Shown here piece after piece: positions 33,001 through 56,593 of a stretch of 64,000 nt of DNA. The stretch is from positions 1 to 64,000 of the forward strand of contig JAGLWF010000007.1 in the NCBI GenBank assembly GCA_023133595.1, read 5' to 3'. The DNA is from Nanobdellota archaeon (GTDB lineage: Archaea; Nanobdellota; Nanobdellia; Woesearchaeales; WJKV01). How positions within the stretch are numbered: position 1 is the stretch's first letter; each line of letters starts with the position of its first letter. The position numbers were made by a program, and so were the translations under genes. The notes under the pieces are model-generated. The model saw only the letters and a list, made by a program, of their open reading frames with translations, was not told the origin of the DNA and did not search any database.

Positions 33001-36000
33001 TTATTTTACCATTATTCTTCAATACTTTATCAAGCAGTTTTGCTTGAACATCAGCATCAATTGTTCTTTCATTGGATTGCAATAAATCTTTAGTCTTTTT
33101 TGAGAATGCTTCATTAAGTAGAGTGTCACGTGCTCTATTAAGGAAGTCACGCTCAGATTTGAACTGCTTTGCATCATCTTTGAACAACTTGGAACCTTCT
33201 TTTGCAGCTTCTCTGAAACGGAATGTCCCTTTTTTAGGATTTATTTCTATATATTCATCTATAACTTTCTGAATCTTCTCAATAACTTCTACTCTCTGCC
33301 TTCCTAGTTTTAATGCACGTTGTTTAGATGTTTCTATTGTGATTTGCATGTTATTTGCTTTATTTTCAAGATGAGCTTCGTCTCGGATGTGGGTTGGACC
33401 TTTTTCAATCATATCTAGTATTTGCTTTGCAAGCGCACGTTCAGCATGAGTTCCCATCTCTGATTTCATTATCAGCTTTTGTTCAGTTAGATAATCAACA
33501 ACAGCAACTCTTGATTTTGAAACAGCTTTAAATGCAGCCTCTAATCCTTTAATACCTTCAGTTTTCATAAGTTCTGCAATATCAACAACATCTCCTTTTT
33601 TACCGCCCGGGAATTTCTTTTCAATAAATTTCTTGATATCATTAAATGCTCTTTCTCGGGTAGGTGAATTAGGCATGTGTACTGTAACTTTTCCAGCACC
33701 AAGTTGTAGCTCATACATGAGAACTGCTGGCATCATAACTGCAGTCTTACCAAATGCAGTAACTGCTTGAATAAGTACATCCCTATTTCCGTGCACCTCT
33801 AATAATGCTTGCACTTGATTGCCCCTTAATTTCATTTTACTAACACTTTCAAAATTATCAAGATATTCATTGAAAGCTTTAACTTGTTTTTCAGTCACTC
33901 CAAACTTATTATATATTTCACGAACTTCTGGACTAGCTTCATTATATTCTATCAATCTCTGCTTTGCTTTCGGATCTTCTGGAAGAAGAGACTTTTTCTG
34001 TTTAGCTGTCAGAGTTTTCATTTGATCTGGTGTAAAAATATCTCTTACCCGACTAACACCTTCAGCAAATGTAAGTGACTCACTTACTCGTGAAACTTGT
34101 GCCTCTATTATCTCCATCTGTGCTTGATAGAATCCTTCTCTAATTGCTCCAGTTGTTTTTAGTTCAATTAGATATTTTGTTCTTAATAGTAAGAGTTCCT
34201 TCTCTATCTGTAAAGATTCAACAGTATCTATCTCTGCTTTCTTTTGATATTCTGCATCATATTTCTCTTTGATAGTATGTTTTAGCTCTTTAATCTCGGA
34301 TTCTAGTTTGGCACGTTCAGCAACTTTTTCAGGACTTAATTTTTCTAATGCTGTTCTTTTCTCAGCCAATTTTTTCTGTGCATTCTTGACTTCTACCTGT
34401 TTAAGCTGTTTTTTAAGAATCTCTAATCTTTTTTGTTCAAGAAGATTTTCTTGACTTTTTATCTTCTTCAATCTTTCATTCATAACTTTATCGCCAGCAT
34501 CATCAGCCCTTTCTTTTTGCTTTAATCTTTCATTTCTTGCTTTGATTGCTTTTTTCATCAATTCTATTGTTTTATCGTAAGTTTCTGCAGTATAATCGCC
34601 ATCCTTCATATTTTTAGGATCATTGAATTCTTTTGCAAATTCAGACATGTATCTTCTTCCTTCAGAACCTGCTCTCTGTGCTTCAAGAATATTTTTTCTT
34701 CTCACAAATTCTTCAGGGATCAGTTTTCCACGTTTGTATTCGATTTCAATATGTTTTAATGCTGCATCAATCTCTCTAATCTCTGCTTTGCTCAGCTTTA
34801 TTGTCTGTTCATAATCTAATCTTGTTTGAGCATCTGTAGATTCTCCTTCTACTTTTTCACGTGCTTTCTTAGATCGTATACTTTCTAACTCAGCTTTTAT
34901 CCGATCCGGAGAAACTTTATTATATTGGGCTTCCAATTTTCCAATTTCAGAACGTAATTGTTTTGCTTCTGGAGATTTTGTAGGCAATTTATCCAATTTT
35001 TGCCTTAGCTCAGTGATTTCTGCTTGAAGTTTCCTTGCTTTTTCAGGAGAAGTTTCCCTAAGCTCTCTCTGCAATTCACCCATTCGTTTCAAATCATGTT
35101 TATTTAAAGCAGCTTCAGCAGTCTTGACCGCCTTCATCAACTCAGGAACATCTTTAATATACCTATTCATCTCTGCAATCTCTCTTGATGAATATTCACC
35201 AAGACCAGCATCTTTCAATTCTTTAGCAGTTACTTTTCCTTTCCTGAATAATCTTTCTAATGTTTTTGTATCAACAGTTCTTGATCGGCCATCGGCAGTT
35301 TGTGTTTCAATAAGACTACGTAATGCAGATCTTCTATCTACTGTAAACTGTTTAGGTACCCGTTTTCCTTCTTTTGTGGTTTCAAGTCGTGTTTCAATGA
35401 AATAATTTGCATTCCTTCGGGTATTCTGAAGATTTTTCTCAAGTGGATTTCTGTCCATCTGTCTTCTTGTAACAGCAGAGACCCTTCCTCTCATAATCGC
35501 TCCCTGGAACACACCGCCCCCTTTCATACCTAATATAAAGACGCCGTTTCCAACAAAACTCTTGCCGAGATTTTCCCAGCTGAACTCATAATGCTTACTA
35601 GTTAGTGCTTCTCCTACCTGTTCAGACGCAACAAAAAATGAGACTTCTCCGACAAGTGCTATTGTTTTTCCACCGATATTCAGTACAGCTTCTTCACCCA
35701 CCATTGTTCCAAAGACTCCAGTTCGCCCCAATACTGCACCAAAGCCTTTATGCAATACGCCTAATGAACCAATGATGAACATGTTATGAGCAAACTCGCC
35801 AGCAAGGGCTCCAGCAGTCCACTCCCCTTCCCCTTTTGCAAGCTGCCATCCTCTGTGCATTGTAGTGAAAATAGCTGCATTCAGAACAAGACCTATACTT
35901 CTAGCAACAACATTTCTTACAGCAGCATTTGCTAGGACCTTTCCACCAACTCGGGATATCAAACTTCTCGCGAAATATCTGGCAGCTAATCTAGTAGTAT

Positions 36001-39000
36001 AAACTCTACCAAGACCCATAATTCCAGCTCTTGCAGCTCCAGAAGCAAATCCAGCCATACCACCAGATGCAACTATCGCAGCCAGTTCAAGAAGAGTTCC
36101 AATGTTCAGATAATCATCCAGCCAATGGCCCTCATAATGTTTAAGAGACTTGAACGAATATTTACCAATATCAAATGATTTGAACCTGGCAACATCAAAC
36201 TCACCCCTGTTATCAATAAGTCCGAATGAACCTAATCTTGTGTAAGCTGCAACATTAGTGGTTCTTACTCTCTCAACAGATCCTTTATCAACATCATCAT
36301 AAAATTGTCCTTTCAATCCAGCGATCATACGTTGTATGTGCGCAATCTGTGCTTGTTTCCTATATTCTGGCATATCAGAGGCTGCAATCTCTGAAATCTG
36401 TTCTTCTAGTGTAGCAACTCTTGCTTCAAGATCCCCTTCTAACTTTTCAATCTCTTTTTCGCGCGCATCCCTTATCGCTTTGACAGCTTCAACCAGGTCC
36501 TCAATCTTTCCTCTTTCTGCTTTGAACATCTTATCATATCTTGCATATCCTTCACCAACCAAAGAACCATACACTTTACCCATACGGAAGACACCAGTGC
36601 TATACAAGAAATCCTTCAATCCATCAAATGTTCTCAAATCAATTTCAATATGTTTGTTCCTCTCGTATCTGGATATCGCAATTTTTCCGTTCAGTGAAGC
36701 AATAATATCTTCAAGACGAGATGTTACCAAACTAGCTTTTTGTCTTCCATCAAGACTAGGATCAATACCCCTATTAGGATTTCTACCGACCTTGTCATTC
36801 AATTCCTTCCATTTAGCAACATAATATTCTAGTCCTGTTTCAGCTACCCGGTAATTCCTATAAGTCAATGGATTATGGCCAAGCACAGAACTATATTCCT
36901 TATGATCTTCTATAATTCCCTCAACACGTTTCTTTTCCCAGTCATATCGCTTTAATTCTTCCCTATCTAATTCACCTAAACATTCTTGCCTACCTTTTTC
37001 TCCTTTTCCAGTATGCAGGCAATGCTCCACACCAACAGCCCGCCGTATTGCTTTTGCCTGCTCTGCTAATATCTGATGTTGGATTGCGCGGTGAGGAAGC
37101 TGGAATCTCTGGTTCTCGTGCATTGTCCGCTCAAACTCAATAACCTTTTGTCCATATTCTTTATACAGTTCTGCAGCATAATTCGCATCTATTTTTGCAA
37201 GATATTCATGATAAGCTTTGAGTTTCCCCTGCTCTCTAGCCATTGCCTTCTTTAATTCCCAGATTTGATTTCGTATTTCATAATCTTCTCTCTTAGGATC
37301 TTTCTTTTCAATATTTCCAATCTTACGGCCAAGTTCCCAGATCTTATCCCTGGCATTATTTCCAGATTGCTCCATGTACATCTTTGTATTTTCAGAAACT
37401 TCGCCTGGAGGATCACCATACATCACTCCTGCTTCATCGCGATCAAGAGAACCTTCTAAATTTCCTTTTTCTTCCAGAAGTTTTTCTATTCTAGCTTGTA
37501 TCTTCTGGTTAAGGAGAATATCTTCTTCATGTTCAGGATTTTCATGAGGATCCATCTCCGCCATCATAACATCAAGATCCATCTCTTCTTTCCGGATGAA
37601 ATAATCAAACCGTTCATCAATCTGTTCTTTTGTTGAAGATCTGAATTTGTCCAGCATACTGTCAGTATCCTCAATTGCTACTACTGCTTCTGGAGAAAGC
37701 TCTTCGAACTCTTTCTCTCTCTTGCCCCACATTAGTTCGTCCAGTTCGTTTGCTATTTGGTTTGCATAATCAAGAGCAAATTTGCTTTCATCAATAGCTT
37801 CTGTGTTTGCAAGATCTGCTAATGCCCTTGAAAGATTTTTTCTGTCTTCTGCTGTGAAGGATCCAGGTTTTGTTTTTAGTTTGTTAAGCAAAGCAACAAT
37901 TGTCTGTCCGCTCTTTCTCAGGTTGCCTTCTCTATATTCCTCATATTTTGATTCCTTCAGGATCTCTTTTATCGCATCTCTCCAGGCTTTATTGTTTGAG
38001 GAATCATCTGTTCTTCCTTCTCTATATTTATCAGCTTTCTTGGCAAGATAGCTCAAAGCCCTGCTTTCTTCTTCAAATGCAATTTCATCATTTATCGTCT
38101 CTCTTGCCAGTGCTTTTTGCTGATGATACAACCGTTCTTCCATCTCTCTGATCTGGCGTCTCTGCTCTTTAATAACATTAGAATCATCCTTGAATCCCAA
38201 TCCTTTCTGTTCTTCTAGCTCTCGTTTAAGCCTTCCGATTGCCAGAAGGGTTCGCTCGATCTTAGTTTTCATACCTCGATATTTTGCAAGATTCATCTCG
38301 TGAGAGTAAGCTATTGAAGCATAATCATCACCTTGTCTCTTGAGCACTGTGTTTGTATCAGCAATCCGATCCAGAATCAATTTTTCTGCTTCTTGTAATT
38401 TCTTCCTGTCTGCATCAGTCAATCTATGGTCGTATCTTATTTGCGCTAGTATCTGAGCATATTTTTTCTTAAGCTCTACAGTTCGTCCTCTATGGAACCG
38501 CTGATATCTTTCTCCTGTCTTTGGATCCCGCACTACAAAAGTATCTTTTCCTCTTTCATCCTTCTTTCCAAGCCCGCCATAGACTTGTTCTTCAATATCT
38601 TTGACAATAGCAGCACGTTTCTCTTCTTCTGCACGCTTCCTTGCTTCTTCCAATACTTTGTCTATTTCTTTCTGTGTTTTTAGAAACTGGTCAATATCAT
38701 CCTTTGAACTCTTTGTATCCAGTTCAAGATCTTTCTTGAAAGTTTCAAGCTTCTGCTCGAAAACTTCTAATGTGATCTCTCCAGCCATGAATTTTGCTTT
38801 AAGATCCTGAACATAAACAATCTCTTGCTGTCTCATATCAGCTGCAAGAATTCTTTTCCCCCCTTCACCAAAGAATTCATCAAGCTTAGCTTGATTTATT
38901 CTCTTTAAAATATCCTGAAGACCAGTTCCATCTGCATTAGCCAACTGGCCTTTTAATCCGTCAATATCAGCTTTTATCTTGTCATACGCTCTGGCCTTGC

Positions 39001-42000
39001 CGTACTCTTTCTTTAGCTTGCTGTCAAGATTAGCTATCTGTTCTTCTAATCGTCTTAATTCTTGTTCTGCTTTTTCCACCTCTTCATGAGAAGTGCCTGC
39101 AGCTTCAAATTCGTCCTGGCATGCTCCTTCTGATTTTTTTGCTACACAATCCCTATAAGCTTTCATATCTTTCAAGAACTCTTCTTGTCTGCTTTTTATA
39201 CTTTCAGGATCCTCAGGATCTTCTAATTGTTTCTTCCGATCTTTCATCCCTTCTAACTTATCTTTCTCAACCATCCGGTCTGCTTCTTCTGCTCTTGCCC
39301 CTTCTCTTCGAGCTTCAAGTTCTTTTTCTAGCTCTTCAATCTGGGCTTCAACCTCTTTGATCCTTTCTTGCAGATCAGCTTCTGATTCAAAGTCAGCGTT
39401 TTCAAGAAGACGTTGTGCATCCTCACTCGAAATTCCAGCGTTTTCAAGTTCTGTTATTGCATTTTGGATCACAGTATTTTTCATCTCTGCAAGCTCTTTC
39501 TCTAGCTGAGCCATCTGCCTGGCATTTGCCTCAAATCTCTGGCCAATTTCTCCAAGAGATGTCCTTACATCATTTTGATCATAGCCTATAGGCTCTATTT
39601 TATATCCATCGGCTAATTTACGTTTTGTTATTTTAACTTGGATGTTTGTTCTTTTTCCATCTTTATCAAGCAAGTAATATTTTCCGTCATGCTTTGTGAC
39701 CCATTCATTATCTTTTAATTTTCCTTTATCATCAAATATACCATATGCTGGTTTTTGCCCTGTTTCGAATGTAGCAGCAATACGGGCAAGAATATAATGT
39801 TGTTCAGCCAGTTTCTGGCTTTCCTCTCCTAATGCTCTTCGCTGCTCGGACTTTTCTTCGTAGCCTGGTATCTCTCTAAAGGAATCTGGATTGGATAATT
39901 TGACTATAAGACGTTGCGCAGCTTTTGCTTTCAATTCTTCTTTCAATCTGGCTGCTTCTTCTGGAGATGCATCAGCAAGTCTCTTTTTTAGTCCTTCCAT
40001 CTCAGCTGTAAGTTTATCTTCCAAGATCTTTTGTTTTGCAAAGAACTCGTCCTGGACAAATCCACGATATTGTTCGGTCTCATCATTGCTCATCTGTCCG
40101 TAAACTGCTCCAGTATGGATATCTTTGATCTCGCCTGTCCGATAATCTATGAAGACAGAACGTTCATTGCCATCAATATCAGTGAATGTTGTGAAGCCTC
40201 CGACCTCCACATTCTCTCCGATATCATTCAGGAACAATCTATTGATCAATGCAGGATCAAATTTCTTTGGATCAAAGTCCTCGTCACTTAATAGATTAAG
40301 AAGGCTATCTATCTTCTCCAATCTCATCTTATCTCCAACTGTTAACTCCTTCTTCTGATCTAATAATGCTTTTTCTGCTGTCAATTCTTCTTTCTTTTTC
40401 TGAACATCAAATGTAACAACATGGGCGAACATTTCTTTTATCTCTCCTGTTTCAGGATCAATTTCAAAGTCACGCACAGTGCGCAGTCCTTCTGCCTTCT
40501 TTTTGTTGGCCTCATCTAATTCCTTTACAGCCCTTTCTCTTTCTTTTTCATAATATTTTTTCTCGCCCTGCAGTCTTTTGATATCTGCTTGTTCTTCTGC
40601 AGAGAATCCTTCAAGCTTCTTCTTTTGTTCTTCTTCTGATAATTTTTCGAATTCTTCCAGATTCATTTCTTGTTTTTTCAGAAGCTTTGCAAGTTTGGCA
40701 GATGCCTCATCTATCTTTTCCTTTGCCCTTTTTTCGCTGCTTTTAAGACCTTCGATCCTCAGATTGATAAGTTTCTTGTCAATGTCAGACATCCGTAATG
40801 TTGTTCTCAAACCATCCAACTGCAACTGCCTTTGCATTACATTTTTCTTCAGTTCGTAGAATTCACGATTCTTTTGTTTTATACCAACCATCAATTCTAC
40901 TGCCCGATCTCTTTTCGGTTTAAGCTCACTCATCTTATCTGCAAATGCTTTCCTTGCATCATCCAACTCTTTTTGTTTAACCTGATATTGAGCATACTCT
41001 GGCTTCATACTGGCCAATTCTTTTTCTAGATCTTTGACTTTATCAGAAGCTTCCTTCATCCCGCTCTCAAACTCTGCAAGCAGTTTCTTATATTCATCAT
41101 ATTCTTTGCTTTTCAGTGCAGCTCTTGCATCATCAAGCTTCTTATTTCGGCCAACCATATCTTTTTCTAGTTCAGTAATTTTTTGCTGCAAAGCTTGCAG
41201 ATGACGAGTGACCACACCTTCTTCTGGATCATAAAGGAACTTGTTTTTCTCTGATGCTGCCTTTGCAATGTCCTCGGCATTTGCCATATACAAACTATTT
41301 AACTCTGGAGATTTAGTCCTCAAGAAACTCGACAATGGCTCTCTTTCAGTGATCTTCCATTCACCGTCTTCATACTTCAAAGCAAAGCCCAAATGTTTTG
41401 TATTACCTTGGATTAAATTCAACATTCCCGTTGTTACCAAGTTTCCATCTTTGTCTCTTGGAGCAACATCTTTCATGAATTTTGTTAAATCTTCTCCAGT
41501 GCTTTTGATTTTCTCTTGCACTGCTTCTCTATGTTCTTCATCGCTTGGATCAAAATCCTTACCATAAATCTGCTCTCCGACAGCCTTTTCCAATTCAGCC
41601 TTATGCTCGCTCTGGTATCTATCTAATGGAACAGCATGTTTTTCTTTATCTCTATCAGACATAGTTTTATCTAATGCTATCTCTTCAGGAATTACCATCC
41701 ATTTTCCATTCTTTGCTATTAATTTGTTATTTCCTAAAGTCTTTTGCAAGTTATCTACAGAACCTTGAATTTTACCGAATCTTTCCTGGAAGTCTTTCAA
41801 TTTACCTTTCATCCCAGGCAATATCTCATTTACCATCGTATCCAATACTGCTAATTTTGAACCTGGTGTTCTCACCTCCGTAGACCATTTGAGTACTGCT
41901 TTCTTTTCTTCTTCGGTCTTTTGATATTCTTTATTTTTCGGTATTTTTTGATATTCTTCTTGCAATCTTTTCTTCTTTATTTCTATTTTTTCTAAATCTT

Positions 42001-45000
42001 TTTTGTTATTTTCTAAACCTTTTTCCAGTTTTTCTTTCTCTTCTTCTAACTCAACTTCTTTTTCTGCATCATACATCCCTTCTTTACGCTCCTCAATAAG
42101 TTCCTTTTGCTCTTTCTCTATTTCTACTAATCTTTTCTTTTTCTTTTCTGAATCCCCTTCAAGATTTTCTTTCTTTTCATCTAACCCAAGTCTATCATCG
42201 AGATTCTTTCTTCGCTCTTCCGCCAGCTTCTCATCTTTCTCTAATCCTCTTTCTAATGCATCTGCTTTATCATCTCCTTCTCTCCGTCTATATTCTGCAA
42301 TCTTATCTTTCTTTAATTGCTCTAGTTCTTTCCGAAGTTCTGATTCGATCTCTTTCACTAATTCATCAACTTCTTTTACATCTCCAAGACTGGTGAATTC
42401 TCCAAGTTTCTGAAACATCCTTCCAATAATTTGAATATCTCCTCCAAATCCTTCTGGAGGATCTTTCAGAATCATTTCGAACAATTGCTTCTTCACATCC
42501 TGTGCAGCTTCTAACAACCCGCTCAACAGGTCAAGCCTGATTCTTTCTGGACCAGATAAACTTCCAATACCTTTTTTCTTTCTATAACCTTTATTTCTTC
42601 CAAGGATTATGTCTCCTGTGTTTGTCTTGTCTGCTTTCTTCGCACCATAACCTCCAGCAATATCTTGCTGGCCTTTCTGTGCATTCGCAGCTCTTTCTGC
42701 TGGTGGCAGTGGCGGGAATACTTTATCCCACGGAGGCAATGACATAAGGGTTCTTTTTGGAATAAATCCTACATATACACCAAACATTGTTATTTCTAAC
42801 TTTTCCCATTCAACTTCCAGTGCTCCCCGGATCATCCTTGCCTGCACAGCAGGATCTGCTGGCTTCTCAGGGGTTGGTCTTGGTTTTGGTTTTGGTTTTC
42901 CGCCAGGTCTTGTGGATCCTCCTGTTGTCGGTGTGACAGTGCCTGTTGGATCAGATGAGAGAGGAGGTGTGAAAGTTGGTTGCTTCTTAGGTCCAGGCAT
43001 GTCTATTTCTTCAGGCAATGAATCGCATTTATCCAAATCCACTGTCCAATAGAGTGGATCAGATTCAGGATATTTTTCTGCGCACGTCTGGTCGCATTCT
43101 TCTGTTTTAGGATCTGGTTTGTTCCCAGGATCATAACCTGTCAGGGCCCAGTTAGGCACAAAACAATGATCGTCAATTGGCTCGTTCTTAAACTCAAACT
43201 CTATCTTTCCTTTTGCTTTGCCTGTCCCTCCATTTCTTGAATATTCTTCAACTTCTGGAGAGTCCTCATTCTTCTTGAATGTCCAGCATTCATATTCATC
43301 TTTTTTGTTATAATCCTCTACTTTCTTATCCAGCCAGCCATCAAATACACTGAAAACATTATTACTATTAATATAACTCAAGACAACATTAGAATAATGA
43401 CAATCAGCATAATGTATCATGGCTGCAAGATATGCCATGTATGCATAAGCCCACATTACATCTGATTTCAGGCTCGCAAGATTTTCACTACTGTATTGAT
43501 CATCAAGCGCATCTGCATCTGAACCGATTTGTTCTACAATGTCACTGAAATCCTTATAATCATCTGCAAATGTAGAATACCCAGTGCTCATATCATTATA
43601 ATCTTCATTTGCCACACCTTTTATTTCCTTTTTACATTTACCAACTAATTGTCCGACTTGGCCAGCCCATCCCAGATAATTTGCTTTGAACTTATCTAAC
43701 TTAGCTTTATCTTTATTGATCTCTTCTTTTAATTTACCAACATCTGCTCCTCCTTTGCACGACTGGCTTGCTTCTTTAAAATATTTAGCTTGTTTATCAG
43801 AAGTTTTCTTGATAAAGTCAGGAATATCACTCATAATTTCTTTATAATACCCCCCACTAAAACTCTGTGTACTAATTAATTTAGTCCAATATTTTGCTGA
43901 TTCTGGTTCTGGTTCTGTTCCAGTAGCATCTTTGTATAATGCCTGGGCAATTGCCCATGCTTTTCCGTATTGTTTTAACAACAATGTATCTTTGAAATGT
44001 TCTGCATTCGTCTTGACAGTCTGTGCATTTTCCTGATTTATGTTCAGCGCGCTCTGGTCTGCTCTCCCTCCATCACCTTCGCCAGCTCCAGCTGCTCCAC
44101 CAGATGTTCCTTCTGAAATACACCACTTTCCATCATCTGGATCTTTTGGAATTACTAGTGCAGCTCTTCCAGTTATATCTGCGATTGCGCTTCCAGTGAT
44201 AACACCTAAATTCTGTTCACGAGGATGTTTTGGTTTCTTGAACTTGACTGGTTCTGGGAGTGCCAGCAGACTGTTCTCATCGATTTCAGGGATCCTTTCT
44301 ATGCTTCTGCCAAGGATTTTTTTAGTAAATCCAGTTATTCCGCCAGTTGACTGAGCAGAGTGAGCATAACTTTTGCCAGTGGTTTGTATCAATCCACCTA
44401 ACTTCCCTTTCATTGGAAGCACGCCGTTTGCGCATCCAGCTAGATCACTGCCTAGTGCTTTCTGTGCATTTGACAATTCTTCAGAGCCACCACAGCCTCC
44501 ACCAAGCCTTTCAATCATTTCTGATTCTTCTAATTCAGTTATTGTCTTCCGATATCGCTGCTCTTTTGATTGTGCACCAGTAATATCAACAGTAGCTGCT
44601 GGAGCTAGCATCATCTTTCCATAGCCACTACCGCTTGGTTTTGGAGTAATTTCACCAGCCCTGTATCCTGCTTTTCCTCCACCAATTTGTTTCATCGCAC
44701 CTGTCATGCCTTCTGCACAGCCAGCTTGTTCACCAGGAGGTACTGGTGGAGGTGGATACTGGATGAATGCTCTTGCATCACCAATTCCTTCTTTTGGATC
44801 GAACCGGAACTGTACTCTTTGCACGCTTCCTTCTACACCATCTGCTCCGCGTCTGTACAAGAACCACATTCCTTCGTTGACAAAGGTAGGTTCTTCTGGT
44901 TCTGCCTGTTCTTCTGGAGATTTCACTACTCCGGCAATAGCGCTTGCTTCATACTTCACAGGCGCTCCTCCTCCTTCGACCACAATCTGTTTCAGGACTC

Positions 45001-48000
45001 CAGAAGGTAGTGTTACATCGCCAGCAAAGGTGACACCTTCACCATAAGGTCCGCTAGAATAAGTTGTTGACTTCTTTCCGTCTGCATCTGTTGTTACAAC
45101 TTTTTCAACAACCTCTACAGAACCATCAGGCTTCATTGTTTTTTCAAGTGTTGTTGTGACAGTAGTTCCATCTTCATTTGTCACTTCTGTTGTTGTTGAC
45201 TCAGAATATGATTTTTGCTCTTTGCCTTCAGCATCTGTATAAGTAATATAACGTTTTGTCAATGTTTTTCCATCTTCAAGAGTTACAGTTTCTTCAACAA
45301 TCTCTTGTCTTGTTTCTTTTCCTTCAGGATCAATCGAGACATAGATTGTCTTCTTCATCTCCTGTCCGTCTGGTCCGATACCTTCGAATGTTGACTGTCT
45401 TGTCTTTGTGACCTTTGGCACTCCGTCTGGACCAGTTGTTATAGTAATATCTTCAGTGATCCGCTCTCCATCAGGGCCAATGCTGGACTCGCTCGTTTGC
45501 GTGACAGTGGTTGTCTGCGGTTCACCATCAACAATCTGTGTATATGATCTTGTTGTCGAAGGGATTCCTTCTTCATCATAGGTGGTGATAGTTTTTGTTG
45601 AATATGGTTGACCATCCTGGTCTGTTGTTTTTGTTGTGACAGTCACGACTGGAAGACCGTCAACTATTTCAGTTTCATAAGTTGTCTCTACGTCCTGGCC
45701 AAACACTCCTTTTGTTATGACAGTGACTGGGCCTTCTCCAGGCTCGACAACAGGAGGTTCTTCTTCAAACTTATCTAATCCTTCTTCATCCCATGCCTCT
45801 TCGTCCCATTCTTCGCCCCAATCATCTTCTGCCTCTTCGAAATCCTCTGCAATATCTTCTCCAATCTCAGCAACAGAAACAGGTTCTGTGATCATTGGTT
45901 TGTCAACAGCTTTCTTGTCTTCTTGTTTTTCAACACTGCCAGGATAGAAGATTCCTAGTTCAAAAAGAATATTGCTTTGAGTTACAACTTCAGGAGTAAG
46001 CTCAACAACAGCGCCTGCTGTCAATAAGATCATTCCAGATGGTTTAATCTCATTTCTTTCAATCACTCGAGGTTTGCCAAGAGCCACTGGTCTGCCAAGC
46101 GGTGTCAAGATAGAATATCCACTGACATCCTGTCCTCCAAATTCATAGATACTTCTTCCTATTGGAATATCTCCAATTCCTCCTGGAACAACACCCATAT
46201 CTACCAGACCTTGCGGAGTGATCACTGGTATTGTTTCCTCTTCTCCTGCGACTCTTAATTCTGTCTTTCCTTCATCATCACCGCCCCAACTGAACGCGTC
46301 AACCACAGTGGTTCCTTCTTCACTCAACTTGATAATCTTTACAGTACCTTGCGACATGCCAATGACATCGTGAGTAACTGGCTGTTCTTCACTTTCTTCC
46401 TCTTCTTCTTTCTCTTCTTCTGCCTCCTCTTCTACCTCCTCTTCTTCTTCTACCTCTTCTTCTACTTCTTCTTCTTTCTCTTCTTCTGGGGTAATCAAAC
46501 CACCTTCGTCAGAAATAACTACTCCACCACCAACTCCGGTATCTGTAACTTTCCTTTCATATCTAATTAAAGATAGAACTTGCGCACCAGTAATAGGTGA
46601 TCTCGAATTCTCATCTTCTAATGTATTGACAAGCGCGCTTTCTTCTGTCAGTTCTGTCAGAGGTTTGTTTAGTTTGACAAACGGATCATAATTCAGAAGT
46701 TCGCCAACCTTTACTAGTGGATATTTTCCATAGAAGAATGCCACTTCTTCAGGCAGCATTGTCACTCTTATTTCTGGTTCAACTGCTTCGAACCCTTCTT
46801 CAGGAATCATTTCTTCTGGTGGAACTTCTCTTTCAGGGAATTCTGGTCTTCTTCCTTCTGGCACTCCCTCTTCTTCCTCTACTTCCTCTTCTTCCTCAGG
46901 AGTTATTTCTGGAGGGACAAATTCTGGAGGTTCTTCTTTTGGAGGTTCTGGAGGCGGTTCTTCAACTGCCTTTGGAGGGAAATAAAAGTCTGGTTCATAA
47001 GCATAAACCTCTTCGAAATATTTTGGATGTCCAACCACAAAGATAACACCAGATCCTCCTAGTCCTGATAACGGAATGACATAAGTTTTAGTTTCATTCT
47101 CTTCGACCAGCCTGCTTTCTGGTGTTTTTGGTTCTTCTGGAGCAGGTGTTGGGCTTGGAGTTGGTTGATATGGAACATCGACAAACTGCGCACCAGTTAC
47201 ATCCAAGAGAGCATCTTTTGGAGCTACAATATCTTTTTCACTCTTCAATGCTTCAATACCCAGGTCAACTTCTGCGTTTGGTTTATAATTCGTGAATCTT
47301 CCTAATCTTATGAATGGATAATGCCCATAGAAGTAAACTTTCTGTTCTGGCCGCGCAACAACCATTATTCTTGATTTTGTATTTTTCGGGTCAGTTATCT
47401 CTCCAGTATCTCTATTGACTGTGAATTCTTTTTCAAGCAAAGGAGTGGCGTCATTTAATCTTATTCTGAAGGTAACTTCTGGTTCTTTCAGTTTTGCAAG
47501 TTCCATGAACTCTCCTTGCTCGTTTCCTTGCTGTGTCAATGTTGTATCCAATGTCTCGATCTTCGCGTCCTCGGGAGGAATCGGAATTTCTCCAAGCAAT
47601 GCAAGTTCATTGATCGTGCTTGTTGTTGTTATTGGATTTGCAATGCCTTGCTGTGTTGCTTTGTCAACAACCTGCGCGTCAATCACTAAATTTTTGTTCG
47701 CGTCAAAATTAAGGCCTTTGAATACAATATCACACGGATTCTCATCAGAATAATAATCCATGCATGGGAAGTCTTCATCAGGACCGTATCCTTCTCCAGG
47801 CGGGTAACCATCTTCAGGATAACCATAATCAGCTGTATTGAATGTGAATGGATACGCATCTTGCGCATTTGTATCAGGGATCTGGTCGAACAATGGCCGT
47901 GTTTCATCTGCACCATAAATCTTGCCACCAATCCAGACATTGACAACTGGAGGCAATGGTTCAAGCGGAGTGAACGCTGCGATCCCATCGTTATTCGTCA

Positions 48001-51000
48001 TCTCAATCTCGCCAGGGATACGTTCTCCGTCTCCGCCAGTCACAACCAATGTATCTTCTGTGATTGTTTCTGGATCAACCTGGCTGCTGAACACAATCTG
48101 TATCTCAATACTCGGAGGCACTGTCATGCCAGGCATTGGACTGGAATAAGCAACCTGCAGTCCAGGACCAGAACCTGCAACAAAAGAACTTCCGAATGCT
48201 TTTGCCGGGTCAAGAGCAAGCGCAGGATTCTCTGGTTTTCTGTTTTGGTTTAGCATGTTCGCGTCTTGGTCTGTGAACGAAGTAGGGACATAGACAAAGT
48301 ACCGCATGAACGGAGTCAGCTGTTTTCTAGGTTTGAACTCAAACAAATTATTGTTTCCTTTTACCAGGAATGTTCCTGCGATCGGAACTCTCTTATTGTC
48401 CATTATTTTTATTTTATTGACTTTGCTTGTGTCCATTGGCTTGCTGAAAGCAAGGAATACATTTGCAGTTGTCGGAACATCCTCTTGCTCATCATTAGGG
48501 AAGACATCTGTTACAAATGGAGTCATCACTTCTTGTGCAGTTGCAGGCTTGTTGGTTATCTCAATATGATACTTGCTCATATCCAAAGGCATATCTCCGG
48601 CTGGATTGATCTGCGGAATGAATATCGTGACAAATTCACCGCGGTCAAGGATTCTCTTTTTCTCTTGTTCGCTCAGGCCTGTTCCTGGTTCTTCTTCAGG
48701 AGTTTCTTCTCTGCCTTCCTGAGGGATGAACGGAACATCAGTGATTTGCGCGCCTGTAGGGATATCAAATGGTCCAGTATATTGTGGTGCAGGAGTTGGA
48801 GTCTCTCCAGTTTCTCTGGTCTCTCCAATTTTTCCAGTTTTTTCAGCTCTGTCAGTTTCCTCTTCTTTTTCCTCGGCAGCTGCAGCTGATTCTTCAGTAG
48901 AGCCCATATAATTACCAATCGCTCCGATCTTTGGTTCTGGTCCAGGAAGATCGTCCTCACTATCTGCAGGACCGCATTCTGGTGAATCATCAAATACACA
49001 CTGACAACCAATACATTTCACACCGATTGGAGAATCTTTACATTGTTCTGCAGCCAGTTTATCTCTTTCTGGATCTGAAAGTGGTTCTCGCTGGAGTTCG
49101 CCTGGTGCACCTGGTACTTTTCCAAGTCCTGGTGCTCCTGGAGTTGGAGCTGGTGGGGGGGTTGGTACTTCTCCTGGTATTGGTGCAGGTGTTGGAACTG
49201 GTGTTGGTGCAGGTGGTGTGTATCCTGGCTGGCAATGTGTTTCATACATACAATCAGGATCACTGCAATCAATTGCGCCATCACCATCATCATCTATATT
49301 ATTATCACAGATCTCGCTTGGCCCATACGCTGATGGAGGAGGTTGCACTCCATGACAGAATCCTTGCGCAGCGCAATCCGGATCCTCACAGTCAACATAA
49401 CCGTCACCATCATCATCCTGAACATTACTGCAGCGAGAAAATGTATTCTCTGCTGCTCTTCCAGTAATGAATCCAAAGATTGCAGCGCCTGCTACCTTAA
49501 AACTTTGAATAAATTGTTGCTGTTCTTCTTGTTGTTGTCCTTGTTGCTGTTGTTCTATGCCACGTCTTCCAGCTGTCCTTTCCCGCTGTATCCTTTCTAA
49601 ATATTCTTCTTCTGTTTCCTGAGCTTGCTCTGCTCTTTGCTGTCGGGCAGCTTCTCTCTCAGCCAGAATCTCTTCTGGTGTTTTTCCAACATCACACTGC
49701 TCTCCTTCATCTATTCTGAAATTTCCACACTCTGCTCCAGCATCTTCATCTGTGATTCCCGCTTCCTCAGGCATATCTTTTGGTTCTTTGTATGCTTTTG
49801 GTTCTGGAAGGCCTGGCTTGTATTCAAACTCGCCAGATGTCAAACATAATGCTGTCCAGCATTCAGGACATTCTCCTTTTATACATTTACTCATATCCAC
49901 ACACTTTGTTCTGCTCGCAGCTGTCAAAAATGGGGAGACTTCACATTCTCCCCGACTTTTAATCTCTGGTGTTCCGACTATCTTTCCATCCATGCCAACT
50001 TCAGCACAACAACATTCCAGACAATATTTATCTTCAACGCATTTTCCAGTCGCCACTTGCGTCAACCCGCCGCCAGCCTCGCCAACACATGCTTTCTTTT
50101 CTTTCCACGAGAATGTAAATTTTTTCGGACCATCTGGATTCGCAGGAGACAACTGGCTTGAAGACGGAGGTTCCTGGCAACAGCAAGTATCTGCCCCAGC
50201 ACATGGACATGTAGTTTCCCCATCTTCACATTCCTCTTCTGGGGCGCTAACAGTAACAGTATAATCTGCTGGTGGAGGATCTTCTTCACATTCACCTACT
50301 TTCTCATCAATATCCTTAGAATCAGCTCCTACTTTCCGAGGTGGTTTTTCTGTTGTAGTGGAAGTATATGTACAGATAGGGTATTTATCAATAAGAATAT
50401 AATATTCAGTTGTCTTTTCTATAATAGTCCAGGTTGCTGTCACAGGCGGGCCGCAGTCTATTTCCACAGTACATTCTTTTTCTTCTTTATCAGGTTTCTT
50501 AGGACATGAAATTTTAGGACAATCACACTCCACATCTGTTTTCGGACATTCGTCAACACCACAATCAAAGGTTTGTGTCCATGTATCAGGTCTTTCACCA
50601 TCTTTTTCTTTACATTGTTCGTCCATATCTCCTTCGCCGCTTACTTCTATATCTTCTACTTCTGTCGTTATCTTGTTAGTCATATCACATGGTTCAAAAG
50701 GAGCAGTTGAGTATGTTTTCGTTGTCGTAGTTGTAACTTTACATTTTCCCTTTGCTTTATTAGTACATGCGTCTTCGATTTCAGGACCTTCACAATCTGT
50801 GGTGCTTGATGATGTAGGTCCAGGACAAGGTTTTCTCTCTTCTGTTGTTACAGGCACAACTGTAGTACCACGCGGTCTTGGATCAGGTTCAGTAGTTATT
50901 CCAGAATAATCTGAACTTACATCAAATGTTACAGAAATTCCTACAGAAACATCTGAATCAACATCTACAAAAATCTTGCCATCATCATAATAAGCAACTA

Positions 51001-51937: not shown

Positions 51938-52285
51938 CTATACCTCCAAGATTGTAAAAAAAAGGGACAACCCATTGCCCAAGCCTTGGTGAGGAAACGG
52001 CTTGAGCAACAAGTTGAACTCCTAGTCTTTTGGGGAATTGATATGGACTAAGCGTGATTCTTTGCATAGCATATTTTGCTATTGCTGCCAAGTGCAGCTT
52101 TCTGATTTTTTGTGGGATATGCATAGACTTGGCTTCTGATGTCGAGGACAATACCAGCGGAACGCAGCAATAGCTATCAAAGTGCATAGCACGCTCCGCA
52201 CGATCATTATTATGATCATTAAACCGAGTCTTTTTCACTCGAGTGTTTGCTCGAAGGCTTTGCTTGGTGTTATGCACATTCACTT
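51938..52285 (-). promoter_or_regulatory. Hairpin-rich leader of the giant gene
   Basis: This 348-base stretch has no convincing gene. It carries an unusual number of inverted repeats: 52236-52245 (perfect palindrome CACTCGAGTG), 52202-52217 (6-bp stem, 4-base loop), 52157-52199 (5-bp outer stem), 52084-52098 (5-bp stem), 52066-52082 (6-bp stem), 51977-52007 (9-bp stem with G-U) and 51964-51980. The giant gene's GGAGGT lies at 51942-51947. It may be a structured untranslated leader or a small RNA. No clear TATA box was seen in it, so the giant gene may be read from the promoter upstream of the 52801 gene. Confidence 0.55.
51956..52007 (-). terminator. Possible attenuator: two overlapping hairpins and a U8 tract before the giant gene
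   Basis: On the minus strand a 9-bp stem (52007-51977, loop of 13) is followed by a short stem (GGGCAA with UUGUCCC, 51980-51964) that abuts eight Us (51963-51956), 18 bases before the giant ATG. The two stems share the GGGC at 51980-51977, so they exclude each other, as in an antiterminator/terminator switch. U tracts alone can terminate archaeal transcription. Confidence 0.45.
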
Positions 52286-52801
52286 TCATACCCACACCTC
52301 CTTTGACATATACTCTACTTTATTGTCGTCTAGAAAGTGTCTAAACATTGGAAACTTCTCTGCTGTTATCAGCATTGTAGATTTCGAGATTAATTCAAAG
52401 CCTTCTTGATCCTTCAGACCTTTGTAAGAATATTTCTTGCCCTTGATTGTGAGAGAATGGCCGTAGATGGCTTTACTTATCTTAACTTTTTTTGCTGACT
52501 TTAGTTTTGTAAGGTCGTAAGAAACAAGAACATAAGGTTTGAGCTTCAGTTGTGAGAAATTAAGAGCGCCATAGACAAACTGACCTGAACGTAATGCGTC
52601 TTTGAGTTCATGCGCTTCATCTATATTATGAAGCGTAAACTTATGGCCCTTCAGAATCTTTTTGATTCTTGGATAAAACTGCTCATAAGCTTTCATATCT
52701 AAAACTACTAAGAACTCGTCATTCGAAAGAATAACTGCCTTAAGACAGTCGATTTCCCTCAAACTCTTCACTATTTCAGTAATCTCTTTATCAGCTATCA
52801 C
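52286..52801 (-). CDS. Unknown 171-residue protein upstream of the giant gene
   Basis: Start is GTG at 52801, with GAGGG about nine bases before. No signal peptide or membrane helix, so it is cytoplasmic. Two halves are visible: an N-terminal alpha/beta part with CLKAVILSNDEFLVVLDM, reminiscent of small nucleotidyltransferase-like folds, and a C-terminal part with VLVSYDLTKLKSAKKVKISK, IYGHSLTIKGKKYSYKG and TMLITAEKFPMFRHFL. The C-terminal pattern (YDLT...KV..S.A.YG) is one I associate with small archaeal proteins of unknown function. It is the first gene behind a promoter with three operator-like palindromes and may share a transcript with the giant gene, so a regulatory or assembly role is possible. 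Function unknown. Confidence 0.85.
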   Translation of the reverse strand: MIADKEITEIVKSLREIDCLKAVILSNDEFLVVLDMKAYEQFYPRIKKILKGHKFTLHNIDEAHELKDALRSGQFVYGALNFSQLKLKPYVLVSYDLTKLKSAKKVKISKAIYGHSLTIKGKKYSYKGLKDQEGFELISKSTMLITAEKFPMFRHFLDDNKVEYMSKEVWV

Positions 52802-52849
52802 CTAAAGCCCTCATTCGGTCTCTCACAACCTATCTCAAATGTTTTTGGC

Positions 52850-52929
52850 TTAGTAATATGTTATTAAAGAACTCATATATAAATGTTTTGGTTAACATAT
52901 TAGTTAAAATTTAGAAACACGTTAACAAA
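52850..52929 (-). promoter_or_regulatory. Promoter with three operator-like palindromes upstream of the 171-residue gene
   Basis: A TATA-type box reads AACATTTATATATGAG on the minus strand (52871-52886), so transcription should start about 25 bases downstream. Site A (TTAGTAATATGTTATTAA, 52850-52867) covers that start; site B (weaker, 52892-52909) and site C (TTAGAAACACGTTAACAA, 52911-52928) lie upstream. The same element recurs at 54519-54595. Confidence 0.65.
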
Positions 52930-52950
52930 AAGGAAGAAAAATAAAAAATT
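52927..52950 (-). terminator. U-rich terminator after the 494-residue secreted-protein gene
   Basis: Directly downstream of the stop at 52961 the minus strand runs AATTTTTTATTTTTCTTCC then TTTTT, a typical archaeal U-rich termination signal without a hairpin. Confidence 0.6.
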
Positions 52951-52960
52951 TAGTAATGAA

Positions 52961-54445
52961 TTAATTAGCCGATGGGGATGGCTTACAAAGACCGGCATCA
53001 CATGCACCTTGGAGTGCTTTAGGCATAGCAGTTCCCCTAGGATATTTATTATCAAAATATCTTTTTATCTTCACCCAATCAGGTTTCCCAGCTTTTCTAT
53101 ATCTTCTCATCCATTTATAGACTTGGCCCTCTATGTTTGCTGGACTTAATCCTTTTGGTTTCTTAACTACGCCGGGGCAGGTTGCCCATCTTTTCTTTAT
53201 TTTTGTTTCTGGATCAATACATGGTGCTCGTTCGCCAGTGCTTACAGTGGTGAATGTAAACTGAACTCTATGCGCACTAGGAGGTTTTGGGAGATCCTTT
53301 GGACACCCCAGAGGTTCCCTTGTAGTTTTAGTTTTACATGGTTTTGTTACTTTTTTGCCTTTGCATTGCTCTTTTTGCCAAGGTTTCTCTTTAGTTGTAT
53401 CCCGAATACATTTTGGAAGAGGACCAAGATTCTTATATCGAATAGTTTTCATCTCTATAGTATAAGTTGGATAATCAGGTTCTTCACAAACTGTTATTTG
53501 CTTATACTTACACCAGATTAGACCTTCTTCTCCTACTTCCAACATAGGTTCGCCTCTCCCTCGGTTCCAATTTATATTGCCCACATCTCGGCCATCAATC
53601 TCAATTTCAAGTTCAGTACTCTCGCCAGCACCTGTTCCAATAATATTTATTGGAGTCCCGACTGGACCTTGCCTTGGTTCAACATCTGCTACAGCTGGAT
53701 CAGTGACAGTGATAGTGAACCAGCCATGTTCAACTCCGCCAACTCTAAGACTGCCGTCGCCGTAAGTGCGTGCTCCATCAACACCTTCTTCATTGTTTCC
53801 TATTTTAATAGTAACATCATCTGGATTTATTGGTTCTCCTGATGAAACATATACAATTGTTTCTGGTTTTGTTGATTCAGGTGTAAACGCACTGAATGTA
53901 TAAAGACCCGGACCTTGATTAAAATTAACAGTAGTCGATGCACGACCATCAGAACCTATTACACCTGTATCAATTACTGTTGCAGGACTCCCTTCATGAC
54001 TCATTGTGATCTGATATGTCCGTCCTTCTGCTGATTCTCCTGTTTCTAATTCAACTTCAAAATCGATCTTAGGAGTATCATCTACAATAAAATGAGACAT
54101 ATCTTCATATTCGGTTGCTGGTTCAGCTAATGGATCAAGATCATAGATTATTGGTTCTTCTCCAGCATAAATTTCTATATCTGGTTCTTCAACAAATTCT
54201 TCTTCAACAGATGGTTCTAAAAGATAAGAAATATCTTCATCGAATTTAGGTTCACTACTTGGTTCAATTCCAAACCAATCCCCGACTGTATATACCATCG
54301 ATTGAAATGTGAAGGATAACCAGGAAATTTCATCTTCTTCAAATTCAATAGAATCTGCAGTCTCTCCTTGCGCAGCTGCGACAGGAGAGAAAGTCATTAT
54401 CATAATGATAAAGAATGTTATTAGGAAAATACGTTTTTTTACCAA
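52961..54445 (-). CDS. Secreted Ig/IPT-domain protein with basic Cys-containing C-terminus
   Basis: I choose TTG at 54445 (494 residues): AGAGGTGG lies five bases upstream, the product begins at once with a signal peptide (VKKRIFLITFFIIMIMTFSP then VAAAQG), and an upstream in-frame ATG at 54502 overlaps the TATA-like run. After an acidic segment with a Trp/Phe-rich stretch (ISWLSFTFQSMVYTVGDWFG) comes an Ig-like domain (TYQITMSHEGSPATVIDTG ... GLYTFSAFTPES), then an IPT/TIG-like unit (VEPRQGPVGTPINIIGTGAG), then a Lys/Cys-rich part with CKYKQITVC and PCKTKT. It is exported and probably a surface or matrix protein. It is divergent from the 54677 gene, with shared operator-like sites between them. 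Confidence 0.85.
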   Translation of the reverse strand: MVKKRIFLITFFIIMIMTFSPVAAAQGETADSIEFEEDEISWLSFTFQSMVYTVGDWFGIEPSSEPKFDEDISYLLEPSVEEEFVEEPDIEIYAGEEPIIYDLDPLAEPATEYEDMSHFIVDDTPKIDFEVELETGESAEGRTYQITMSHEGSPATVIDTGVIGSDGRASTTVNFNQGPGLYTFSAFTPESTKPETIVYVSSGEPINPDDVTIKIGNNEEGVDGARTYGDGSLRVGGVEHGWFTITVTDPAVADVEPRQGPVGTPINIIGTGAGESTELEIEIDGRDVGNINWNRGRGEPMLEVGEEGLIWCKYKQITVCEEPDYPTYTIEMKTIRYKNLGPLPKCIRDTTKEKPWQKEQCKGKKVTKPCKTKTTREPLGCPKDLPKPPSAHRVQFTFTTVSTGERAPCIDPETKIKKRWATCPGVVKKPKGLSPANIEGQVYKWMRRYRKAGKPDWVKIKRYFDNKYPRGTAMPKALQGACDAGLCKPSPSAN

Positions 54446-54676
54446 ATCAACCACCTCTTGATCAAGATATTCTATTAGAATATCATTATTATATATATAC
54501 ATAGCGAATTATTTGTTTTTAGAAACGTATTACTAAATTTAGAAAGGTATTCCTAAATAAGTAAAGAAAAGGTAGATTAAGAAACATATAACTAAACGAA
54601 ATATATCATAAACATTTATATAGAAAGCAGATATATCAAAACAAAAAGAGGTTTGATAATCAAGAGGTGAGATGAG
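54446..54676. promoter_or_regulatory. Divergent promoter region with three operator-like palindromes
   Basis: Plus-strand TATA box TTTATATA at 54615-54622, ribosome site AGAGGTGA at 54663-54670. Minus-strand TATA-like run at about 54488-54500. Between them lie sites D (TTAGAAACGTATTACTAA, 54519-54536), E (TTAGAAAGGTATTCCTAA, 54539-54556) and F (TAAGAAACATATAACTAA, 54578-54595). D to E is 20 bases and E to F 39, about two and four helical turns, so a protein could bind them on one face of the DNA. Confidence 0.7.
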
Positions 54677-55765
54677 ATGAAAAAATTAGTTTGTATAATT
54701 CTAGCAATATTAATGATGTTTTCTGTGGTAAGTGTTGTCAGTGGTCAAGGTGATGACATAGAATTTCCAAAGTTAACAGATGATGATTTTAAACTTGGTG
54801 AAAAAGTTACTACTGACCCCAAAACTGGTGGAGAAGAAGAAGAGGAATTCACTGAAGACCCACCACTTCCAGAGTGGGCAGAGGAAGGAGAAAAAAAAGA
54901 ATTGACTGAAGAATTAGAAGAACCAAAAGGATTTTTCGGAAAAATCATAGACTGGTTCAAAAATTTATTTGGAATTGGAGTAGAAGCACCTGCTGAAGAG
55001 GGTTTAATAGCTGCTCCACAAAAAAGCATCAAAATGATAGCTGTTGTTCCTGATCTGTTAAACAAGTTAGAAAATCAAGGTATATTTCTGACTGCGCAGC
55101 TTGAGGATGAACTTGAGGCAGAAATCGAAAGGATAGATGACTGGGTTGAGACTCACAATCCACCAACAAGTTACGTTCCAGATATCAGGAAGATATTTGA
55201 CAATCCAAAGATAACTCCTACAATAATAAACGAAGTTCTGGATGATATAGAGGAATGGGAAGATATCTTTGAAAAAACAGGAGAATTACCAATAGGCGCT
55301 CCAGGTACTATCGAGTTTGATTCAAGTATCATAATGACAGATATCCAGGATGCTGCTGTTAACACAGTTCAAGCCAGTCTTGCTAGTTTCCTGTCAACGA
55401 ACAGAATTGCTCCTGAAGCAGCTAGTGTTGTGCTTGGAGGCACGCACGTCCCAGTTACATTGCTTGTTACTGATGATGAAGGTGTAGCGCAGCCAGGACA
55501 GTCAGTAATTTTCAAGTCAAGCGATGGAAGCATTGAATTCGATCCTTTGACAGGAGTCACAGATAGTGAAGGCTATGTATCAACAGAAATCACAACTCCG
55601 AATCCTGGCAAAGTTGGAGAAGACCTTTTGCAAACAATAATTTTCGCAGAAGTCTCTGATGAAGTCACATCAAATGAAGCTGCAGTTATAACAGTTGGTC
55701 TACAATCGTTTGATATAGTTAATACAGCAGTATCTAACATACAAGGAGACGATACATCAAACTAA
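54677..55765 (+). CDS. Secreted protein with C-terminal Big-1-like Ig domain
   Basis: 362 residues, ATG preceded by AGAGGTGA. The signal peptide is MKKLVCIILAILMMFSVVSV then VSGQ. An acidic region follows, with an amphipathic Trp-rich helix GFFGKIIDWFKNLFGIG that parallels the Trp-rich stretch of the divergent neighbour. The middle is helical (LNKLENQGIFLTAQLEDELE). The C-terminal ~110 residues form a bacterial-Ig (Big-1/invasin-like) unit: PVTLLVTDDEGVAQPGQSVI, GVTDSEGYVSTEIT, then FAEVSDEVTSNEA. An extracellular structural or adhesive role is likely. The gene is followed after 27 bases by another secreted-protein gene, so the two form an operon. Confidence 0.9.
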   Translation: MKKLVCIILAILMMFSVVSVVSGQGDDIEFPKLTDDDFKLGEKVTTDPKTGGEEEEEFTEDPPLPEWAEEGEKKELTEELEEPKGFFGKIIDWFKNLFGIGVEAPAEEGLIAAPQKSIKMIAVVPDLLNKLENQGIFLTAQLEDELEAEIERIDDWVETHNPPTSYVPDIRKIFDNPKITPTIINEVLDDIEEWEDIFEKTGELPIGAPGTIEFDSSIIMTDIQDAAVNTVQASLASFLSTNRIAPEAASVVLGGTHVPVTLLVTDDEGVAQPGQSVIFKSSDGSIEFDPLTGVTDSEGYVSTEITTPNPGKVGEDLLQTIIFAEVSDEVTSNEAAVITVGLQSFDIVNTAVSNIQGDDTSN

Positions 55766-55792: not shown

Positions 55793-56593
55793 ATGAAACG
55801 TATAATCAGTTTACTTATTGTAATGTTAATGGCATGTTCTGCAGTGGTCTTTGCAGCAGGAACCCCAGAGATATCATTGAAAGCTATGATTCCAGGAAAT
55901 ATCATGGCTACTGCGACTTTTGTTGGTCCTCCACCGTTGCCTATCGGTATTTTAATAGGTTTTAGGAAGACTGAAGCTGATTTTGAAAAAGTCCTGATAA
56001 GAGTGCCGGAAAAATTGCAGGAACCGATCAGACTGCAGGCAGAGATGACAAAAGCAATATTAAAAGCGCCTGGAGATGAAGATGGTGAAGAACCAACAGG
56101 AATTCTACCAGAAGAAGAACCTCCAGGAGAAGAGCCTACACCAAGACCGCCAACACCGAAAAGACCAATACCAAAAGTTCCGCCAGCTGGAGAAGATAAT
56201 GGTGAACTAGGTCCTCCATGGACAATAGAAAAATGCGATCAATTATTAGGTGGACACCCTTTTGAAGGTTATACAGATCTTCCAAACAGTTGTGCCACCG
56301 GAGGTCCTGTGACAGCTCCTTTGACACAGTGCACTTACTGTAATCCGCAAAAGACAAGTACAGGGGATCCAGAGATCTGTGTTGATGCGAATGGATTGAT
56401 CACTGCTACGAGTGGATGTGTTGCACCTGGAGCTACAATCATAATAACCAATCAAAATACTCAGGAACAACTGATACTAACAGCAAATGCACAAGGAGGA
56501 TTCCAGATTCAGTCACAAACAGCGCAACCAGGGCATATCATCAGTGCGACATTAGCTAGGATCCCATCAACACCTCCTGTAGTAGATATATAA
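55793..56593 (+). CDS. Secreted Pro-rich protein with small C-terminal beta domain
   Basis: 266 residues; ATG behind TGAGGTGAGAGA, the same ribosome site as the gene before. The signal peptide is MKRIISLLIVMLMACSAVVF then AAGTP. A roughly 70-residue N-terminal part is followed by a Glu/Pro linker (about residues 95-135, with PRPPTPKRP), a short Cys-containing part (CDQLL, CATGG, CTYC, CVDANG, CVAPG) and a C-terminal beta unit (ATIIITNQNTQEQLILTANA then GGFQIQSQTAQPGH). The same beta unit (AKIIVTNLQNEDETYTYADD) occurs in the small protein at 57742-58071, linking the two loci. Likely a surface protein of unknown function. Confidence 0.88.
   Translation: MKRIISLLIVMLMACSAVVFAAGTPEISLKAMIPGNIMATATFVGPPPLPIGILIGFRKTEADFEKVLIRVPEKLQEPIRLQAEMTKAILKAPGDEDGEEPTGILPEEEPPGEEPTPRPPTPKRPIPKVPPAGEDNGELGPPWTIEKCDQLLGGHPFEGYTDLPNSCATGGPVTAPLTQCTYCNPQKTSTGDPEICVDANGLITATSGCVAPGATIIITNQNTQEQLILTANAQGGFQIQSQTAQPGHIISATLARIPSTPPVVDI

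What the first reader, a model, noticed from the sequence alone, without database searches (positions are those of the whole stretch)
52850..54595. Six copies of an 18-bp palindromic element in two promoter regions
Sites A, C, D, E and F match TTAGnAAyrTrTTACTAA well, B less so. They lie at the promoter of the 171-residue gene (and perhaps the giant gene) and between the divergent secreted-protein genes, with near-integral helical spacing between D, E and F. This points to one regulator for the whole locus; none of the genes here is an obvious candidate for it except possibly the 171-residue protein.
Basis: partly seen in the sequence, partly recalled or inferred. Interest (0 to 1): 0.72.

Follow-up and report, generated by a model that had tools for sequence, protein, structure and literature searches.

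The report
Regulator-binding site arrays controlling surface genes
In an uncultivated Woesearchaeota archaeon, two mirror-image clusters of an 18-letter palindrome sit at the promoters of a giant surface-protein operon and its secreted-protein neighbours, and the same cluster design recurs in a relative in front of a ribosomal protein gene, so they are very probably docking sites of one unidentified regulator.

Summary
The element is real. A profile built only from D, E and F ranks A, C and a new seventh site (G, 52950-52967) as the next three best of 64 kb; shuffles almost never match it. In the 1.37-Mb genome it is confined to this locus; the other near matches checked lie inside genes. The sites form two mirror-image arrays with one rule (C-22-B-39-A and D-20-E-39-F, bp). 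Only the 20/22-bp steps are near-integral helical turns; 39 bp is 3.7 turns.

The closest held relative, Candidatus Woesearchaeota archaeon Bin_486, carries the same three-site array (21 and 39 bp) in front of ribosomal protein gene uL16/L10e; 58 more distant genomes show nothing comparable. Site-to-TATA distances repeat between promoters (37/38 and 45/46 bp). The giant gene follows the 171-residue gene in an overlapping operon.

Best reading: operator arrays for one cooperative dimeric transcription factor, probably activating the secreted-protein genes and able to repress the giant operon, where sites bracket TATA and cover the likely start. Regulator unknown. The 171-residue protein is a degenerate MNT nucleotidyltransferase, an unlikely candidate. 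Sites, spacing and conservation are shown; binding and sign of regulation are inferred.

The parts
52850..52867 (.). Site A, TTAGTAATATGTTATTAA; 8 bp downstream of the TATA-like box of the 171-residue gene, over its likely transcription start
   Evidence: rank 4 of 64 kb with a D,E,F profile
52889..52906 (.). Site B (weak), TGGTTAACATATTAGTTA; 5 bp upstream of the same TATA-like box
   Evidence: 10-bp core identical to A; spacing 39 bp to A and 22 bp to C
52911..52928 (.). Site C, TTAGAAACACGTTAACAA
   Evidence: rank 5
52950..52967 (.). Site G (seventh site, not in the finding), TTAGTAATGAATTAATTA; overlaps the 3' end of the 513-residue gene, 39 bp from C
   Evidence: rank 6
54519..54536 (.). 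Site D, TTAGAAACGTATTACTAA
54539..54556 (.). Site E, TTAGAAAGGTATTCCTAA
54578..54595 (.). Site F, TAAGAAACATATAACTAA
52840..52935 (-). Array C-22-B-39-A at the promoter of the 171-residue/giant operon
54512..54605 (+). Array D-20-E-39-F between the divergent secreted-protein genes, mirror image of the first
52876..52883 (-). TATA-like box TTTATATA of the 171-residue gene, between B and A; the surrounding 13-mer AAACATTTATATA is shared with 54610-54622
54615..54622 (+). TATA-like box TTTATATA of the 362-residue gene, 37 bp from the start of F
54491..54498 (-). TATA-like box (TATATATA) of the 513-residue gene, 38 bp from the start of D
   Evidence: sequence; inference
52286..52801 (-). 171-residue gene: degenerate MNT-type nucleotidyltransferase with the C-terminal domain of a Woesearchaeota family
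51915..52289 (-). 124-codon ORF linking the 171-residue gene (ATGA overlap) to the giant gene (23-nt overlap); coding status not proven
2..51937 (-). Giant secreted Ig-like-domain protein gene (at least 17,312 codons, cut by the contig end), last gene of the operon
52961..54502 (-). 513-codon secreted-protein ORF; likely real start TTG at 54445, behind a ribosome-binding site
54677..55765 (+). 362-residue secreted protein with a Big_1-like domain
55793..56593 (+). 266-residue secreted protein, probably co-transcribed with the 362-residue gene
   Evidence: inference from 27-nt gap

Best explanation
The sites are two operator (upstream activator) arrays for one dimeric, cooperatively binding transcription factor of this Woesearchaeota lineage. 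Each array has three palindromic sites spaced 20-22 bp and then 39 bp toward the promoter; a fourth site (G) extends the first array by 39 bp. Adjacent dimers 20-22 bp apart would sit on one face of the DNA and bind cooperatively. At the divergent 513/362-residue promoters all sites lie upstream of both TATA boxes, with the nearest site start 37-38 bp from TATA, so binding most likely activates. At the 171-residue/giant operon, C and G lie upstream, but B abuts TATA and A covers the likely transcription start, so full occupancy should repress. The simplest outcome is coordinated, possibly opposite, control of the small secreted proteins and the giant surface protein. Shown: sites, spacing, private distribution, conservation of the array in the closest held relative. 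Inferred: binding by one protein, its sign, and control of the giant gene through the operon.
For: Cross-validated motif and shuffle tests. Confinement to this locus in the genome. Mirror arrays aligning end to end. The same three-site array with 21/39-bp spacing in Candidatus Woesearchaeota Bin_486 before uL16: with own-site weights only, array score 43.5 against a maximum of 16.4 in 3000 shuffles. Of 60 genomes searched with the array profile only these three arrays stand out (E about 1e-15 or lower; next best 0.003), noting that all three trained the profile. Repeated site-to-TATA offsets 37/38 and 45/46. Archaeal precedent for multi-site dimer binding, activation from just upstream of BRE/TATA, and dual control (PMC2995911).
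Against: No regulator identified and no binding data. Only one relative has the array, at a functionally different gene. The 39-bp step is not a whole number of turns, unlike the two or three turns reported for Lrp-type arrays. The genome's own uL16 promoter lacks the array. Transcription starts and TATA boxes are predicted only; a weaker TATA-like sequence (52832-52839) downstream of A would place that whole array upstream and remove the repression argument.
Confidence: 0.75

Rival explanations
1. Chance resemblance among AT-rich promoter sequences.
For: The sequences are AT-rich, and single exact matches of the symmetric 12-base core occur at random in relatives, with the control pattern as frequent or more so.
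Against: Cross-validation, shuffles, confinement to one locus, conserved 20-22/39 spacing in a second genus.
Confidence: 0.03
2. Autoregulation by the 171-residue protein, which would itself bind the sites.
For: Its gene lies directly downstream of one array.
Against: No Pfam or NCBIfam match; it aligns with MNT nucleotidyltransferases lacking a helix-turn-helix; no homologue found in the relative that has the array (84% complete genome).
Confidence: 0.05
3. The arrays are inverted ends of a mobile element (multi-site transposase-binding ends as in Tn7 or Mu) that carries the 513-residue gene; the array in Bin_486 would be another insertion next to uL16.
For: The two arrays are inverted around one gene, each has three sites, and the Bin_486 contig breaks 75 bp before its array.
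Against: No transposase in the interval, no sharp shared terminus, sites are palindromic, similarity peaks at the sites and continues into TATA rather than ending at an edge, no further copies in either genome.
Confidence: 0.04
4. Replication or plasmid-type iterons, or sites for a chromosome-organising protein.
For: 20-22-bp spacing resembles iterons.
Against: Chromosomal-looking neighbourhood (MoxR/VWA, radical SAM genes, named from the translations by eye); position at TATA boxes; recurrence at a ribosomal protein promoter.
Confidence: 0.03

Closest known systems
Archaeal Lrp-type operator arrays (Ss-LrpB three-site control region; Ptr2 upstream sites)
   Same: Several palindromic dimer sites over about 100 bp close to BRE/TATA; mixture of strong and weak sites; dual activation/repression according to site position (PMC2995911)
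   Different: Here sites are 18 bp with TTAG/CTAA ends; spacing 20-22 and 39 bp (39 is not two or three turns); regulator unknown
Doubled TTAGnAA-N4-TTnCTAA palindromes upstream of [NiFe] hydrogenase and hypB genes in Bacteroidota (found here)
   Same: Nearly the same half-sites and the same 20-22-bp doubling
   Different: Bacterial; a TetR-family gene lies beside the hydrogenase element, whereas no TetR_N match above cut-off exists in either woesearchaeote. Probably convergent
DtxR/IdeR iron boxes (TTAGGTTAGSCTAACCTAA; recalled, not looked up)
   Same: TTAG...CTAA outer half-sites
   Different: 18 rather than 19 bp; the inner GTTAG/CTAAC is absent

Membership tests
Archaeal Lrp-type (Ss-LrpB/Ptr2) operator array | Several palindromic dimer sites upstream of BRE/TATA | tested here: met
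Archaeal Lrp-type (Ss-LrpB/Ptr2) operator array | Centre-to-centre spacing of two or three helical turns | tested here: inconclusive
   20-22 bp steps met; 39 bp steps (3.7 turns) not met
Archaeal Lrp-type (Ss-LrpB/Ptr2) operator array | Bound by an Lrp-family protein encoded in the genome | not tested
TetR-type doubled operator (as at Bacteroidota hydrogenase genes) | TetR-family regulator present in the genome | tested here: not met
   no PF00440 match above cut-off in either woesearchaeote
DtxR/IdeR box | 19-bp TTAGGTTAGSCTAACCTAA | tested here: not met
   site alignment (consensus TTAGTAATATATTACTAA, 18 bp)
Transposon ends (Tn7/Mu-like) | Transposase gene between the ends and further copies | tested here: not met

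The most novel reading that the evidence does not exclude
A lineage-specific Woesearchaeota regulator uses a fixed three-site array (20-22 bp then 39 bp) as a module that has been placed at different genes in different genera: at a giant surface-protein locus in one, acting as a reciprocal switch between giant and small secreted proteins, and at a ribosomal protein gene in another.
Probability: 0.25. Interest if true: 0.65.

Novelty: new member of a known kind. Interest (0 to 1): 0.46.

Why it matters
My two literature searches found nothing on regulatory sites in Woesearchaeota. A site array that links a protein of more than 17,000 residues to its secreted neighbours gives a concrete handle (bait DNA and a pattern) for finding how such organisms control the surface proteins through which they probably contact other cells. 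A conserved array architecture across two genera also offers a footprint for identifying the regulator.

Tried and rejected
Homologues of the 513-residue protein: none in 98 relatives or in named genomes. Single-site searches in 144 relatives gave isolated matches at or below control level. The array profile in 58 more distant genomes gave only noise. Viral contigs: none. The genome's own uL16 promoter: no array. Structure of the 171-residue protein from a single sequence: pLDDT 53.5, not used further. TetR as regulator, suggested by Bacteroidota look-alikes: rejected. A weak array-like match at C33:94916-94991 (E 0.04; sequence) has no clear 18-bp sites by eye.

Full report
Observation. All are there. 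The reverse test (A, B, C, G to D, E, F) also placed D, F and E at ranks 2, 6 and 8. Dinucleotide shuffles reach the observed level in 0-1 of 2000-5000 cases. B is weak (rank 162) but shares a 10-bp core with A and falls at the spacing described below; its best register is 52889-52906.

Distribution. In the 1.37-Mb genome, places with at most two mismatches outside the locus number three (C12, C23, C35), and all lie inside coding genes. The symmetric core TTAGnAAnnnnTTnCTAA at up to one mismatch occurs at six places, three of them here; of the others I checked the context of C12 only.

Architecture. Centre-to-centre distances are A-39-B-22-C-39-G and D-20-E-39-F. Read toward the gene each serves, the two arrays are the same: C-22-B-39-A before the 171-residue gene and D-20-E-39-F before the 362-residue gene. 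The two regions align over about 125 bp (score 52; shuffles 26.5 +/- 4.4, none of 500 reaching it).

Promoter geometry. TATA-like boxes TTTATATA lie at 52883-52876 (minus) and 54615-54622 (plus), within an identical 13-mer AAACATTTATATA. F starts 37 bp before the plus box, and D starts 38 bp before the likely box of the divergent 513-residue gene. At the 171-residue gene, C starts 45 bp before TATA, B ends 5 bp before it, and A lies just downstream over the likely start. Starts are inferred from general archaeal promoter spacing, not measured.

Operon. The 171-residue gene ends in an ATGA overlap with a 124-codon ORF, which overlaps the start of the giant gene (at least 17,312 codons) by 23 nt. 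The array before the 171-residue gene therefore probably governs the giant gene too; an internal promoter is not excluded.

Relatives. The only held genome of the same family, G001 (= Candidatus Woesearchaeota archaeon Bin_486, WJKV01000078.1), encodes a fragment of a homologous giant protein (L058). It also carries, before its uL16/L10e gene, TTAGAAATATGTTACTAA plus two more sites at 21 and then 39 bp. Using only this genome's sites as weights, that array scores 43.5; 3000 shuffles of the same region give at most 16.4. One bacterial contig (L101) reaches 34.2, but it had been fetched because it contains the doubled core. The two woesearchaeote genomes are the only ones among 60 with a strong array (all three arrays trained that profile, so its E-values overstate the fit). 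The relative's array starts its last site 46 bp before TATA, against 45 bp for C here. The orthologous uL16 promoter of this genome lacks the array. The contig with the relative's giant gene does not include its promoter, so conservation there is untested.

Regulator. None identified. The 171-residue protein aligns with Woesearchaeota MNT-type nucleotidyltransferases but has lost the GS...DxD motif; related proteins also exist as the C-terminal domain alone. A helix-turn-helix/nucleotidyltransferase gene at 57045-57569 is a possible but unsupported candidate. A doubled version of the same core occurs in Bacteroidota upstream of hypB or [NiFe] hydrogenase genes, beside a TetR-family gene where the hydrogenase operon is shown, but neither woesearchaeote has a TetR_N match above cut-off, so this looks convergent.

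Mechanism. Palindromic sites imply a dimer. Paired sites two turns apart imply cooperative neighbours. Fixed distances to TATA imply contact with, or exclusion of, the basal factors. Archaeal Lrp-type regulators give the closest described behaviour: several dimer sites over about 100 bp, activation from a site just upstream of BRE, repression or roadblock when sites overlap the start (PMC2995911). I therefore propose activation of the divergent 513/362/266-residue genes and dual or negative control of the 171-residue/giant operon. The existence of operators is well supported (about 0.9); common control of the locus about 0.75; the sign of regulation only about 0.4.

Verdict. A genuine, locus-specific operator array with a conserved architecture in a poorly studied archaeal group; a new member of a known kind of thing (multi-site archaeal operator), with an unknown regulator.

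Noticed in passing
L102-L110, L112-L114: Doubled palindromes of the form TTAGnAA-N4-TTnCTAA, 20-21 bp apart, lie directly upstream of hypB or the [NiFe] hydrogenase small subunit in 12 Bacteroidota contigs; a TetR-family gene is adjacent in the three hydrogenase-operon contigs checked (L102, L112, L114). Looks like an undescribed hydrogenase operator.
   Followed up: partly
window 54466-54484: A perfect 19-bp palindrome GATATTCTATTAGAATATC between the TATA box and the likely start codon of the 513-residue gene; the only perfect copy in the genome.
   Followed up: partly
window 54443-54445: The 513-codon ORF probably starts at TTG 54445, behind the ribosome-binding site AGAGGTGG, not at the ATG 54502.
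   Followed up: partly
window 2-51937: Giant secreted protein gene of at least 17,312 codons, cut by the contig end; a homologous fragment exists in Bin_486 (L058).
   Followed up: partly
window 52286-52801: Degenerate MNT nucleotidyltransferase of a Woesearchaeota family whose C-terminal domain also occurs alone in proteins of about 95-104 residues (L028, L034).
   Followed up: partly
L101:4687-4724: Doubled palindrome in front of a pilin-like (N_methyl) gene in the rumen assembly RUG14125.
   Followed up: no
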